Below, in pieces: positions 10,316 through 14,696 of a stretch of 37,607 bases of DNA. The notes below the pieces were generated by a model, which had not been told where the DNA came from, made no database searches, and saw only the letters and a program-made list of their open reading frames with translations. Origin of the DNA: Ignavibacteria bacterium (GTDB lineage: Bacteria; Bacteroidota; Ignavibacteria; Tepidaquicellales; Tepidaquicellaceae); NCBI GenBank assembly GCA_016873795.1, contig VGWA01000010.1:1-37607 (forward strand), given 5' to 3'. Both the position numbers and the translations under genes were made by a program. Position 1 is the first letter of the stretch, and every line of letters starts with the position of its first letter.

Positions 10316-12598
10316 ATGCTTAGAAAAACGATTTTTCTGATATTAATTGTATTTTTCATTTTTAGCCTGAATGCTTATACGAATTCCAGATGGGAAACAT
10401 TCACGGATATGAAGGGTATTGTTTCTGTTTCTGTTACGAGAGATAATAATTCGGCTTTCTGCGCAACTAAAGGCGGACTGTTTATGCTTAACCTCAACGA
10501 CGGCAGTATTATACAAAAATATACCAATATTAACGGCTTGATTAATATCGATTTAACCACGTGCATTCTTGATTATCAGGATAGGTTATGGATTGGGGCG
10601 TCTGATGGTTCAGTATCGGTTTTTGATTATAAAAATAATTCCTGGAAATATATTTATGATATTAAAAATTCTTCAGAGAATAATAAATCTGTAAATGATT
10701 TTGTTTTATACGGTACGGATATATATGCGGCAACCGGATACGGTGTGCAAAGAATATCGACGTTAAATTACAATTTTGTTGATGCTCCGTATTATAAACT
10801 GGGTACATTATCCATTAAGACGGCAGTAAATTCACTGACAATAAAAAATGATACGATATATGCCGCTACTTCATCCGGTATTGCTTATGCACCTTTAAGA
10901 AATTCTAATCTGAATAATCCCTCTTCCTGGACAACTTATAACCTGACTCCCTTTAATGTTAATGTAAGAACAAATGCGGTTTTTGACAACAAGGTTTTTT
11001 TCGGCTCTGACGGGGGATTCGGTTATTTTGACGGTATTGCCTGGTATGATTATCCGAATTCACTCGTATCAAGAGCAAAGACTAAATTTGTAACATCTTC
11101 CGGTGATTCATTGTTTTTTGTTTCCAATAATGTTGTTTATTATGCAACCCGTTCTAACTTACCGTTCATTAATGTCTTTTTTAATGCGGCAAACTGGACA
11201 TATATAGATTTTTACGGTTCACAGCAGCGAAACGTATTCGGAGGTACATCTGATAAAGGAATATACATGGATTTGGGGAGCGGATATTCATTTGTTGCTC
11301 CGAACGGACCGCAAAGAAGTTTGTTTGCTTATCTGTCGGTTGATGAGATGGGAACTCTCTGGTGTGCCGGAGGAAGCGCAGATGCGGGTTTTTACAGTTT
11401 CGACGGGGAAACTTTTACTAATTACAGTATTTATCAAACTCCTCAGCTTGGCAGTAGTAATAATTTTCATAAAATTACAACAGACAGAAATGTAGTTTGG
11501 GCATTGAGTCCGGGAGGAGGTCCGACCTTTATGTCGGGAAATGTAATCAGGAATTTTAATACAAAAAATAGTATTCTTCCCGGAATTCCGTCTGACCCGA
11601 ATTATTGTGTACCTAACGGAATAGCTTATGATAATAACGGTGTCGCCTGGTGTACGTTTTATGAGGTTAACAGCGGAAAATCCTTATACGCTTATCTTGG
11701 TGATACGGTATGGTACGGAATTACAAATCCTTCGATTGTTTTGGTGGCTAATTTTGAAGAAATTGCAGTTGATAATTATAATACAAAATGGATTGTTTCA
11801 GGATACCTCTCTCCGCGCGGATTGTATTTCTATAACGAGAATGGTACTCTTCAGCAGCCGCAGGATGATATATACGGAATATACACTACGGCAGATTTCG
11901 GTGAGGGTGTAAATGATGTTTTCGATGTGATTGTCGACAGAAACGGTGAGGTCTGGGCAGCAACCGATAATGGTGTATTTATAATAGCTAATCCTCAGGC
12001 AGTTCTGCAATATCCGGGTCAAAAACCCCCCGCTGTTAAAATGTCTTTAATCTCCGGAAATCTTAAAGTTCCTTTTACGGAATTCTGCTATTGTATTACA
12101 TCGGATATTCTGAACCAAAAATGGATAGGGACTCAAAATAACGGGGTATTCCATATATCTGCAGATGGTTCAACATTAATAGAACAGCTGAACGTGAGCA
12201 ACAGTCCTATACTTAGTAATAATATAAAATCGATAGTAGTAAACGGAAAAAACGGAAAAGCGTATTTTGGAACTTTATCCGGCTTATCTTCATACCAGAC
12301 AAATGCCGTTCAACCGGTAGCGGAATTTGATAAAATTAAATGTTCGCCTAATCCTTACCTTCTTCCCGCTAATGTGGATTTGAAAATTGACGGATTGGTA
12401 GAAAATTCCGTAATAAAAATTATTTCGCTTACAGGTGAGTTAATAAATACTTTCGAATCGCCGGGCGGCAGAATAGCAACATGGAACGGAAGAGATTCCA
12501 AAGGAGATATAGTCCCTTCGGGAATATATATTATAGCTGCATATAACAAGGAAGGAACGAAAGTCGGGACTGGAAAAGTTGCAATTATAAAAAAATAA
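10316..12598 (+). CDS. PorZ-like secreted two-propeller protein with T9SS-type C-terminal domain
   Basis: A 760-residue secreted protein with a signal peptide (about 1-20). It starts with the two-component-regulator propeller pattern also found in PorZ: a WETFTD segment, then GGLFMLNLNDGS, INGLINIDLTTC and LWIGASDGSVSVFD. Further blade motifs (VWAATDNGVFII, KWIGTQNNGVFHIS) continue to about residue 660. The last 90 residues (CSPNPYLLP... WNGRDSKGDIVPSGIYII... GKVAIIKK) form a FlgD-like/T9SS sorting domain. P. gingivalis PorZ, part of the T9SS attachment complex with PorU, has similar architecture and length. PorZ identity is plausible, but other propeller proteins share this build, and no porU is in view. 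The start is supported by the signal peptide. Confidence 0.7.
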   Translation: MLRKTIFLILIVFFIFSLNAYTNSRWETFTDMKGIVSVSVTRDNNSAFCATKGGLFMLNLNDGSIIQKYTNINGLINIDLTTCILDYQDRLWIGASDGSVSVFDYKNNSWKYIYDIKNSSENNKSVNDFVLYGTDIYAATGYGVQRISTLNYNFVDAPYYKLGTLSIKTAVNSLTIKNDTIYAATSSGIAYAPLRNSNLNNPSSWTTYNLTPFNVNVRTNAVFDNKVFFGSDGGFGYFDGIAWYDYPNSLVSRAKTKFVTSSGDSLFFVSNNVVYYATRSNLPFINVFFNAANWTYIDFYGSQQRNVFGGTSDKGIYMDLGSGYSFVAPNGPQRSLFAYLSVDEMGTLWCAGGSADAGFYSFDGETFTNYSIYQTPQLGSSNNFHKITTDRNVVWALSPGGGPTFMSGNVIRNFNTKNSILPGIPSDPNYCVPNGIAYDNNGVAWCTFYEVNSGKSLYAYLGDTVWYGITNPSIVLVANFEEIAVDNYNTKWIVSGYLSPRGLYFYNENGTLQQPQDDIYGIYTTADFGEGVNDVFDVIVDRNGEVWAATDNGVFIIANPQAVLQYPGQKPPAVKMSLISGNLKVPFTEFCYCITSDILNQKWIGTQNNGVFHISADGSTLIEQLNVSNSPILSNNIKSIVVNGKNGKAYFGTLSGLSSYQTNAVQPVAEFDKIKCSPNPYLLPANVDLKIDGLVENSVIKIISLTGELINTFESPGGRIATWNGRDSKGDIVPSGIYIIAAYNKEGTKVGTGKVAIIKK

Positions 12599-12671: not shown

Positions 12672-13433
12672 ATGCTGATAATACCGGTAATAGATATTAA
12701 AAACGAAAGGTGCGTAAGAATAATAGAAGGTCACGGAGAAAAAACAATGTATTATTCTGAAAGACCTCTTCAGGTGGCAAAGTTGTTCAGGAAAGAAAAT
12801 TTTAAAGCTCTGCATATTACTGACTTGGATGCCGCAGTTTACGGGGATACAAAGAATCATAACCTTATCAGAGAAATAACCAAATCTATAGATATTCCCG
12901 TTCAACTGGCAGGCGGAATTAAAAGTTATGAAATTGCAGAGTATTGTTTCAGGGAACTTGGTGTTTACCGTGTTATAGTCGGGACAACTGCACTTACGAA
13001 TCCGGAAATGATTAGAAATATTATAAAGGATTTTTCTAACACTAAAATAGTAATAGGAATCGATGAAAAGCTCAACAATGTGGTTACAAACGGATGGATA
13101 GAATATGCAAATATTACTCCCCTTGACTTTTCAAAATATATGGAAACTCTTGGGGTAAAAAGAATAATATATCAGGATGTTACGAGAGTCGGTAATTTAT
13201 GCGGACCTTTTGTCGATAGAGTCAGGGAAATCGCTCTGAACACTAATTTAAAAATTACCGTAGCGGGCGGGGTGTCCGATTACAGAGATTTAAAAGTACT
13301 TAAGGATTTAAACATACCAAACGTTGATTCGGTTATGATAGGAAGAGCTTTATATGAAAATAAATTTCCCTGTCAGAAGATGTGGAGAGATATAGAGAGT
13401 ATAGATATTTCGCTGGAATTACCCGAGGTCTGA
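12672..13433 (+). CDS. Divergent HisA-like (beta/alpha)8-barrel protein
   Basis: A 253-residue barrel of the HisA/HisF family. HisA isomerises ProFAR in histidine synthesis. The best match is HisA: IPVIDIKNERCVRIIEG with Asp8, VDLD-like TDLDAA (50-55), AGGIKS (80-85), IGIDEKLNNVVTNGW with Asp131 (equivalent to catalytic Asp127 of T. maritima HisA) and AGGV (198-201). The loop that reads TEIEKDG in T. maritima and TDIxRDG in most others is QDVTRVG here (168-174), so the usual Thr and Asp are Gln168 and Val173. It stands alone, away from other his genes. The stop overlaps the hutI stop by 15 bases. Either a divergent HisA or a repurposed paralogue; the fold is certain, the function is not. Confidence 0.75.
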   Translation: MLIIPVIDIKNERCVRIIEGHGEKTMYYSERPLQVAKLFRKENFKALHITDLDAAVYGDTKNHNLIREITKSIDIPVQLAGGIKSYEIAEYCFRELGVYRVIVGTTALTNPEMIRNIIKDFSNTKIVIGIDEKLNNVVTNGWIEYANITPLDFSKYMETLGVKRIIYQDVTRVGNLCGPFVDRVREIALNTNLKITVAGGVSDYRDLKVLKDLNIPNVDSVMIGRALYENKFPCQKMWRDIESIDISLELPEV

Positions 13434-14696
13434 GGTTTTGTAAACTTTACCTTTTTTCATTACCGTAAGTAATTGGTTTACTCCGAAATGATAAATCAGT
13501 TCCTTGTAGGAGTCAAAATCAAAAATAATTAAGTCAGCCTGTTTTCCCTGTTGTATGCTTCCTGTTTTATTTTGCATTTGAAGTGCGAAAGCGGGATTAA
13601 TAGTAACCGAATTGATAATTTCTTCTGCAGTCATTTTCAATTTCAGAGATGCAAGAGACATAATTATCTGCATGTTTTCAGTCATACAGCTTCCCGGATT
13701 GAAGTCAGTTGCAAGTGCAACGGGTACGTTTTTTTCTATCAATTTTCTTGCCGGTGCGTATTTTATATCGAGAAAATATGAAACACCGGGTAACATTACC
13801 GCAACAATATTTTTGTCTCTTAACTTATTTATATCTTTATCGTTTATCACTTCCAGATGGTCAACCGACACACAAGCTGTATTGATTGCAGCTTCGATTC
13901 CGCCCGTCGAATAGAACTGGTCTGTATGAAGTTTCGGCAGTAATCCGAAATTTTTCCCTTCAAATAAAATTTTTTCCGTTTCTTCCGCACTGAAGTAATT
14001 TCTTTCGCAAAACACGTCTATAAAAACCGCAAGTTGCTTTTTAGAAACAGCCGGTATCATTTCTCTTATGATATATTCGATGTAATCTTTTTTTGTTCTT
14101 TCTGCCGGTATGCTGTGTGCTCCGAGGAATGTAGGTATCAGGTCTAAACCGTAAATATTGTTTTTGTTTAAATCATTAATTACTTTCAGCATTTTTATCT
14201 CATTGCTTAAATCTAATCCATAACCTGATTTTCCCTCGATTGTTGTGGTTCCGTATTTTAAAAAATTTGTCAAACGTCTTTCTGTTATTTCTTTAAGCTT
14301 TTTCAATGCAGTCTTTCTGACTGAGTTGACGGTTGCGGATATACCGCCTCCTGATTTTGCAATTTGTTCGTAAGTTTTTCCCGAAATTCTCATTTCGTAT
14401 TCGTTTGCTCTCGAACCGCTGAAAACAAAATGTGTATGACAGTCGACGAAACCGGGCAGTACGGTTTTTTTGCTGCAATCGATTTCGCTGATTTCAGATG
14501 CCGGTATTTTATACTTTTTCAGAAAATATCCCAGCTTATCCATTTTACCGGAATATAATATCCTGCTGTTATTGATTAGTACTGCTCCGTTATTTACAAG
14601 GCCTATATCATTTAATGATTTCCCTTTTTTGGGTGATGTATCAAAATGACAGCATGTGACGAGATTTGATATATCTTTTAATAAAATTGGATTCAT
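13419..14696 (-). CDS. hutI: Imidazolonepropionase HutI
   Basis: A 425-residue amidohydrolase of HutI type. It opens the imidazolone ring to N-formimino-glutamate in histidine degradation. The metal-binding GFVDCHTHFVFSGSRANEYE, the KSGGGI segment, EGKSGYGLDL and the later LHTDQFYSTGGIEAA with VSVDHLE, and ATDFNPGSCMTENMQ are typical. Length matches the family (about 405-420). It is the last gene of the minus-strand string, one base after the phosphohexomutase gene. No hutH, hutU or hutG is nearby. Its 3' end overlaps the HisA-like gene on the other strand. Confidence 0.94.
   Translation of the reverse strand: MNPILLKDISNLVTCCHFDTSPKKGKSLNDIGLVNNGAVLINNSRILYSGKMDKLGYFLKKYKIPASEISEIDCSKKTVLPGFVDCHTHFVFSGSRANEYEMRISGKTYEQIAKSGGGISATVNSVRKTALKKLKEITERRLTNFLKYGTTTIEGKSGYGLDLSNEIKMLKVINDLNKNNIYGLDLIPTFLGAHSIPAERTKKDYIEYIIREMIPAVSKKQLAVFIDVFCERNYFSAEETEKILFEGKNFGLLPKLHTDQFYSTGGIEAAINTACVSVDHLEVINDKDINKLRDKNIVAVMLPGVSYFLDIKYAPARKLIEKNVPVALATDFNPGSCMTENMQIIMSLASLKLKMTAEEIINSVTINPAFALQMQNKTGSIQQGKQADLIIFDFDSYKELIYHFGVNQLLTVMKKGKVYKTSDLG

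What the first reader, a model, noticed from the sequence alone, without database searches (positions are those of the whole stretch)
12672..13433. Lone HisA-like protein with altered catalytic loop
Asp8 and Asp131 match the two catalytic aspartates of HisA. However, the conserved T-[DE]-I-x-[RK]-D-G loop reads Q-D-V-T-R-V-G, so the usual Thr and the second loop Asp are lost, and GGGI is AGGI. The gene is outside any his operon. The protein may be a HisA paralogue with a new substrate.
Basis: partly seen in the sequence, partly recalled or inferred. Interest (0 to 1): 0.5.

Follow-up and report, generated by a model that had tools for sequence, protein, structure and literature searches.

The report
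Repurposed HisA kept without histidine pathway
A histidine-making enzyme has lost its catalytic acid yet is kept, with a different part of its surface frozen, by a large group of bacteria many of which no longer make histidine, so it very probably does a different and still unknown job.

Summary
The ORF at 12672-13433 (+) is a HisA-family barrel keeping Asp8 and Asp131; its loop reads QDVTRVG, so the catalytic Asp (D176 of Salmonella HisA) is Val173, and it scores below NCBI's HisA cut-off. AGGI is peculiar to this genome (35 of 36 aligned order members read GGG).

HisB and HisD were not found in any of 44 order genomes, while 43 carry the gene, under strong purifying selection. IGPS is missing too, so it is not a stand-in TrpF.

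It belongs to a Chlorobiota/Rhodothermota/Ignavibacteria HisA lineage with an FxCQxxW last helix. Where it is the only HisA of a HisB-positive genome, D8 and D173 are intact (6 of 6). Where HisB is missing or a second HisA exists, at least one is changed (70 of 70), yet C234 and W238 stay. In altered relatives outside the order, conservation has moved from the catalytic face to the opposite face and last helix.

Best reading: HisA kept for a second, non-catalytic role; in this order it follows the secretion gene porZ and keeps its pocket. The job itself is unproven, and an enzyme with a new reaction is not excluded.

The parts
12672..13433 (+). HisA-family (beta-alpha)8 barrel, 253 aa, altered active-site loop, last helix with FPCQxxWRxxE
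12693..12695 (+). Asp8 codon (first catalytic Asp of HisA), kept in 36 of 36 aligned order members
12789..12815 (+). R40-x-E42-N43-x-K45-x-x-H48, end of helix 1 to start of strand 2 (face opposite the active site by the model's topology); R40, E42 and N43 invariant among 45 altered relatives outside the order
12909..12920 (+). AGGI (residues 80-83); GGG in 35 of 36 aligned order members
12969..12971 (+). Arg100, first residue of strand 4, invariant in the tailed sets
13062..13064 (+). Asp131 codon, kept in 36 of 36 aligned order members
13095..13097 (+). Trp142 (aligns with the ProFAR-stacking W145 of HisA/PriA); kept in the order, kept in only 2 of 45 altered relatives outside it
13161..13163 (+). 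Arg164, first residue of strand 6, invariant in the tailed sets
13173..13193 (+). Loop QDVTRVG (residues 168-174); V173 replaces the catalytic Asp, Q168 replaces Thr
13326..13331 (+). Asp219-Ser220 at the start of strand 8, invariant in the tailed sets
13359..13397 (+). N230-x-F-x-CQ-x-x-WR-x-x-E242, last helix; C234 and W238 in 102 of 102 tailed HisA aligned, C234 in 0 of 28 untailed
10316..12598 (+). porZ (type IX secretion A-LPS delivery protein), directly upstream on the same strand; within 80 bp in 33 of 43 order genomes, 1.5-4.7 kb upstream in 7 more
13419..14696 (-). hutI imidazolonepropionase, convergent neighbour, 3' ends overlap

Best explanation
The protein is a HisA that stopped being a ProFAR isomerase and was kept for a second function. 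Shown by sequence: the lineage's HisA has a distinctive last helix (F-x-CQxxW) and a set of invariant polar residues that, by the predicted model's topology, lie at the barrel end opposite the active site. Where it is the only HisA of a HisB-positive genome it keeps its catalytic residues. Where the pathway is missing, or another HisA is present, catalytic residues change but helix and polar set do not. Inferred: this second site binds a partner protein, much as the same barrel end of HisF docks HisH (recalled), so the protein works as a scaffold or regulator rather than an isomerase. In the focal order the old pocket is conserved as well (D8, D131, W142, phosphate loops, with Q168/V173 fixed), so there it probably still binds a phosphorylated ribosyl-type ligand without isomerising it, perhaps as a sensor, and is made together with PorZ.
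For: No HisB or HisD in 44 of 44 order genomes while 43 of 44 have the gene. D8 and D173 both intact in 6 of 6 sole-HisA, HisB-positive genomes and in 0 of 70 others; C234 and W238 kept in all 76. In 45 altered relatives outside the order, positions at least 95% conserved: catalytic face 2/109, opposite face without the last helix 13/57 (Fisher p 2e-5); in 28 untailed HisA 24/109 against 4/57. 21 columns invariant among 17 diverse sequences, the very degenerate G052 copy included. dN/dS 0.01-0.11 in the 12 of 18 focal pairs where it could be computed. Tailed lineage set apart at 99% SH-aLRT. porZ upstream on the same strand in 40 of 43. Tail-helix DNA motif in 322 of 379 class genomes against 30 of 379 for the reversed pattern; 197 of 229 HisB-negative genomes carry it.
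Against: No partner, ligand or activity was shown. The invariant residues could serve only the fold of this barrel variant. In the focal order both faces are about equally conserved (28/109 and 24/74), which also fits an enzyme with changed chemistry. The D8/D173 rule is strict: with Glu allowed at 8, 131 and 173, 6 of the 70 altered copies would pass, and 2 (G055, L106) if T168 and W142 are also asked for; the HisA part of a fused protein in G052's his region itself has Glu in that loop. Two HisB-negative genomes (G081, G086) also keep an untailed HisA with a changed loop, so retention after pathway loss is not confined to the tailed type. Neighbours differ between lineages. 32 HisB-negative class genomes lack the motif, and G042 and G046 gave no match to the protein. 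Related sequences are not independent counts.
Confidence: 0.5

Rival explanations
1. An active enzyme with a new reaction: the pocket with Q168/V173, D8 and D131 converts another phosphoribosyl-type substrate.
For: In 36 of 36 aligned order members D8, D131, Q168, D169, V173, W142, G104 and T105 are fixed, although pairwise identity goes down to 50%. Purifying selection is strong.
Against: The catalytic Asp is gone, the lineages around it lose the pocket while keeping the other face, and no shared biosynthetic operon was seen beside it in the focal-order neighbourhoods listed.
Confidence: 0.33
2. An ordinary but divergent HisA in histidine synthesis.
For: HisA fold and profile hit.
Against: No HisB (0 of 44) or HisD (0 of 44) in the order; catalytic Asp lost; below the TIGR00007 cut-off.
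Confidence: 0.03
3. A TrpF (phosphoribosylanthranilate isomerase), as in retained PriA of Actinomycetaceae.
For: Precedent in PMC5404923; no PRAI in this genome.
Against: IGPS (TrpC) was not found in any of the 44 order genomes, and the catalytic Asp of PriA (D175) is Val here.
Confidence: 0.02
4. A slowly decaying relic; the invariant helix and opposite-face residues only hold the fold together.
For: Catalytic residues erode differently in different lineages; untailed HisA copies with changed loops also persist in G081 and G086.
Against: dN/dS 0.01-0.11 in computable focal pairs; the tail motif in 322 of 379 class genomes; C234, Q235, W238 and R239 invariant in a set with median identity 38%, minimum 25%; porZ linkage in the focal order.
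Confidence: 0.1

Closest known systems
HisA, ProFAR isomerase (TIGR00007, PF00977)
   Same: Fold (Z 27.5-29.2 to HisF, PriA and HisA chains), D8, D131, phosphate loops, W142
   Different: Catalytic Asp (D176 in Salmonella) is Val173, Thr is Gln168; score below the equivalog cut-off; no HisB or HisD found in the genome
Chlorobi-Rhodothermota HisA with an added C-terminal peptide (PMC8305728, passages read)
   Same: Same lineage and same last-helix motif; the ancestor-like form
   Different: Those aligned here keep the catalytic residues. The passages read list extra hisF/hisH copies in M. roseus and do not mention a second hisA
PriA / SubTrpF kept after his and trp gene loss in Actinomycetaceae (PMC5404923, abstract and outline read)
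   Same: HisA-type barrel kept after loss of histidine genes
   Different: PriA is kept as a working isomerase; here IGPS (TrpC) is missing and the Asp used by PriA is lost
AdeK and SubTrpF2, PriA expansions (PMC13055916, abstract and outline read)
   Same: Second HisA-type copy beside an expected one, recruited elsewhere
   Different: Actinomycetota only; an isomerase activity is retained
HisF with HisH
   Same: Barrel whose N-terminal end is a docking face (recalled)
   Different: No gene named as HisH was seen directly beside the altered protein in the neighbourhoods listed

Membership tests
HisA ProFAR isomerase (equivalog) | Score over the NCBI equivalog cut-off | tested here: not met
   219.1 bits against 228.95; altered M. 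roseus copy 216.3 also fails; tailed canonical HisA of G049 268.3 and of Chlorobium 290.5, and ordinary M. roseus copy 242.7, pass
HisA ProFAR isomerase (equivalog) | Catalytic Asp of loop 6 (D176/D175) with the preceding Thr | tested here: not met
   V173 and Q168, 36 of 36 aligned order members; role of the Asp from PMC9088769 passages
HisA ProFAR isomerase (equivalog) | Asp8, Asp131, phosphate-binding loops, stacking Trp | tested here: met
HisA ProFAR isomerase (equivalog) | Genome encodes the rest of the histidine pathway | tested here: not met
   HisB and HisD 0 of 44 order genomes; other his genes not searched one by one
HisA ProFAR isomerase (equivalog) | Enzyme activity | not testable with these tools
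   needs purified protein
HisA/HisF superfamily (PF00977) | Profile match and (beta-alpha)8 fold | tested here: met
   207 bits over 23.6; model pLDDT 89.8, Z 27.5-29.2 in the 50 rows shown
TrpF / bifunctional PriA | Genome has TrpC and other trp genes but no TrpF | tested here: not met
   IGPS in 0 of 44 order genomes; other trp genes not searched
TrpF / bifunctional PriA | Catalytic Asp175 equivalent | tested here: not met
   V173
Tailed HisA lineage of Chlorobiota, Rhodothermota and Ignavibacteria | F-x-CQxxW last helix and R40/N43/R100/R164/D219 set | tested here: met
   tree support 99

The most novel reading that the evidence does not exclude
A metabolic (beta-alpha)8 enzyme acquired a second function on the barrel end opposite its active site while it was still catalytic. 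In one bacterial class that second function alone preserved the gene through repeated loss or replacement of histidine synthesis, giving a class-wide family of pseudo-HisA proteins whose functional site has moved to the other end of the barrel, coupled to the type IX secretion gene porZ in one order.
Probability: 0.42. Interest if true: 0.75.

Novelty: new variant of a known kind. Interest (0 to 1): 0.6.

Why it matters
In 322 of 379 class genomes examined the tail motif of this protein is present, while HisB was found in only 150; annotation that calls the gene hisA will mislead pathway reconstruction. It is also a natural experiment on hidden second functions: the same lineage shows HisA in the pathway, beside a replacement, and without the pathway, so residues needed for catalysis separate from residues needed for the other job, and the prediction can be tested residue by residue.

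Tried and rejected
Ordinary HisA: rejected because HisB and HisD were not found in the whole order. The control genomes ring in 13 of 14 for each; B. subtilis is the one missed, and HisD was not found in two HisB-positive relatives (G047, G057), so the searches or genomes are not perfect.

TrpF substitute: rejected because IGPS was not found in any of 44 order genomes. PRAI (PF00697) occurs in 12 of those 44 without IGPS, which does not fit a simple trp story either.

A link to histidine breakdown through hutI/hutU: hutI is convergent in part of one family and hutU follows on the same strand in the other, but neither is kept across the lineage.

A universal operon partner: not found. Of 45 loci given to (3 could not be placed), 18 have a cyclic-nucleotide-binding protein and a universal stress protein directly downstream, 8 have a PfkB-type gene directly downstream, and 8, with intact active sites, have a HisH-like gene directly upstream (HisH named by eye and from PMC8305728, not scanned; cluster names for the others rest on one representative each). 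porZ is specific to the focal order: 0 of 14 class genomes outside it with a hit show the linkage.

For these I lowered the best reading from 0.52 to 0.5 and the novel case from 0.45 to 0.42, and raised the relic rival from 0.08 to 0.1 and the new-enzyme rival from 0.32 to 0.33. In the still-catalytic tailed set both faces are conserved (39/109 and 19/74).

The first genome-contig scan with the single protein found nothing; the second, with alignment A2, gave the named relatives, a capped best 80 of at least 587. Paper searches, listings only: HisA with PorZ (0 papers); HisA with Melioribacter (3); two of HisA, pseudoenzyme, Ignavibacter (35, 20 shown); three of HisA, pseudoenzyme, TIM barrel, histidine biosynthesis (5); Ignavibacteria, histidine, auxotroph (6); four of PriA, HisA, gene loss, histidine biosynthesis, retained (23, 20 shown). 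None of the titles and abstract starts listed reports this paralogue; only open-licence papers are held.

Rows dropped before counting: fragments L136, L138 and G050; duplicates L092, L094, L095 and G065; the second HisA of G078 (odd frame, read only by eye). Eight order genomes with a hit are not in the final alignment under their own handle (G002, G021, G022, G024, G027, G028, G038, G039; L093 appears to be G022 by contig coordinates). Tailed and untailed were told apart by eye, so '102 of 102' restates that grouping; the tree (quick method, 94 of 130 rows, seven active-site columns left out, tail columns kept in) supports it only partly independently, and the place of G052's long-branched row in it is unsure.

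Full report
What is there. The ORF at 12672-13433 (+) encodes a 253-residue HisA-family protein. Against solved HisA chains it aligns over nearly its whole length, best E 9.5e-35. The AlphaFold2 model (pLDDT 89.8, pTM 0.87) matches HisF, PriA and HisA chains at Z 27.5-29.2, rmsd 1.9-2.7 A over 216-235 residues in the 50 rows shown. In PMC9088769 (passages read) the catalytic Asp is D176 in Salmonella HisA and D175 in PriA; one search places Val173 there. The stacking Trp (W145 in both) is kept as W142.

The genome shows no histidine pathway. HisB (PF00475) has no match in this genome or in any of the 44 order genomes; 5 of 59 relatives have it, all outside the order. HisD gives 3 of 59, none in the order. 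The HisA-like gene is found in 43 of the same 44 order genomes (three of them incomplete) and in 57 of 59 relatives; some of the class-level hits are ordinary HisA. IGPS (TrpC) was not found in the order (4 of 59), so the PriA-type explanation, retention as TrpF, fails.

It is a lineage, not an oddity. Named relatives carry labels such as Ignavibacteria, Chlorobiota and Bacteroidetes; canonical tailed members include Chlorobium, Salinivenus (Rhodothermota) and MAGs labelled Bacteroidetes. PMC8305728 (passages) reports that Chlorobi and Rhodothermota HisA share an added C-terminal peptide, and that I. album and M. roseus have short HisA genes thought to be acquired by transfer. The alignment shows a shared last helix with F-x-CQxxW, also in MAGs labelled Melioribacter and Ignavibacterium. 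The tree puts the tailed sequences on one side of a branch with 99% support and the focal order in a clade with 99%; the change between intact and altered needs at least two steps, more if lost catalysis cannot be regained.

Catalysis tracks the pathway. In six genomes the tailed protein is the only HisA and HisB is present (G049, G060, G061, G062, G063, G066): D8, D131, T168, W142 and D173 are intact in 6 of 6. In nine HisB-positive genomes with a second HisA (G052, G055, G069, G073, G076, G077, G078, G083, G087) the tailed copy has lost D8 or D173 in 9 of 9. In 61 HisB-negative cases with a full sequence it has lost D8 or D173 in 61 of 61. C234 and W238 are kept in all 76 (statuses). Seven of the nine second copies were aligned and keep all five residues; that of G078 was read by eye, and that of G052 is a fused protein with Glu in the loop. 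If Glu is allowed at positions 8, 131 and 173, 6 of the 70 altered copies pass, 2 of them (G055, L106) also with T168 and W142. Two HisB-negative genomes, G081 and G086, hold in addition an untailed HisA with a changed loop. G076 is the genome of a MAG labelled Melioribacter roseus: altered tailed HisA at C27:50024, ordinary HisA, HisF and HisB at C27:65.9-68.4 kb.

Conservation changes face. Using strand and helix boundaries of the model, among 45 altered relatives outside the focal order only 2 of 109 catalytic-face positions are at least 95% conserved, against 13 of 57 on the opposite face and 21 of 74 with the last helix and the N-terminus added. In 28 untailed HisA it is the reverse (24 of 109, 4 of 57, 4 of 74); in 21 intact tailed HisA both faces are conserved (39 of 109, 19 of 74). 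Seventeen very different sequences share 21 invariant columns, among them R40, E42, N43, R100, R164, D219, S220, N230, F232, C234, Q235, W238, R239 and E242. Several (R40, N43, R100, R164, D219, F232, C234, W238) are already invariant in the still-catalytic tailed HisA, so the second site looks older than the loss of catalysis. In the focal order both faces are conserved (28 of 109 and 24 of 74), so its pocket is still in use for something.

The gene is under selection. Of 18 focal pairs 12 gave a dN/dS, 0.01-0.11, with 0.01-0.05 in the nine closest of them; six canonical Chlorobium-type pairs gave 0.02-0.06. Six focal pairs had saturated dS, and many of the others have dS over 1. In 379 class genomes (searched with at least 90% completeness asked for) the degenerate DNA pattern for F-x-CQxxWR hits 322, the same pattern read backwards 30; HisB is in 150. 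Of 229 HisB-negative genomes 197 carry the motif. The pattern misses FPCV variants such as G049, and by the control some hits will be chance.

Context. In the focal order porZ lies upstream on the same strand in 40 of 43 genomes, in 33 within 80 bp; in two of the other three no PorZ over the cut-off was found and the gene lies at the start of its contig, in the third porZ is on another contig. PorZ is over its cut-off in 57 of 59 relatives, also where it is unlinked. In other lineages the neighbours are a cyclic-nucleotide-binding protein with a universal stress protein, or a PfkB-type gene. In G055 the altered gene lies next to what look like purE, pfkB and rfbD; purE- and rfbD-like genes also lie downstream in G049's his operon (genes named by eye). 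This suggests that hisA was spared when the genes around it went.

Judgement. That this is no longer a ProFAR isomerase serving histidine synthesis and that it has been repurposed is well supported (about 0.9). How it works is inferred: a partner- or ligand-binding role on the opposite face and last helix (about 0.5), or a new reaction in the focal order's altered pocket (about 0.33).

Noticed in passing
G001, G006, G013, G016, G018, G019, G024, G027, G029, G036, G038, G042 (for example L043:1483-2148): A TrpF-like protein (PF00697) occurs in 12 of 44 order genomes although none gave an IGPS match, so a second phosphoribosyl isomerase relative may also be kept for another purpose; G045 and G055 hold both a strong and a weak PRAI match.
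   Followed up: partly
L195:1498-2217 and L213:298-1002: HisB-negative genomes G086 and G081 keep, besides the tailed protein, an untailed HisA with a changed loop: a second, separate case of an altered HisA that outlives the pathway.
   Followed up: partly
L002:774-1394 and 1450-1797: HisH followed by a contig-truncated HisF/WbuZ-like protein in this genome, probably a sugar amidation pair rather than histidine synthesis.
   Followed up: partly
window 13419-14696; L087:4181-5839: hutI (histidine breakdown) overlaps the 3' end of the HisA-like gene here; hutU follows the HisA-like gene on the same strand in the other family.
   Followed up: partly
L055, L062, L063, L064, L066, L089, L091 just downstream of the HisA-like gene: A conserved protein of about 230 residues follows the HisA-like gene by a few bases in seven focal-order loci; the one start read looks like a signal peptide; not identified.
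   Followed up: no
L204:1678-2424: G052 holds an extremely degenerate tailed HisA copy without the catalytic N-terminus or loops that still has RKEN and FPCQLIWREME.
   Followed up: partly
L140:4420-5019 and L144:7240-7776: A cyclic-nucleotide-binding protein and a universal stress protein follow the altered HisA directly in 18 of the 45 loci examined.
   Followed up: partly
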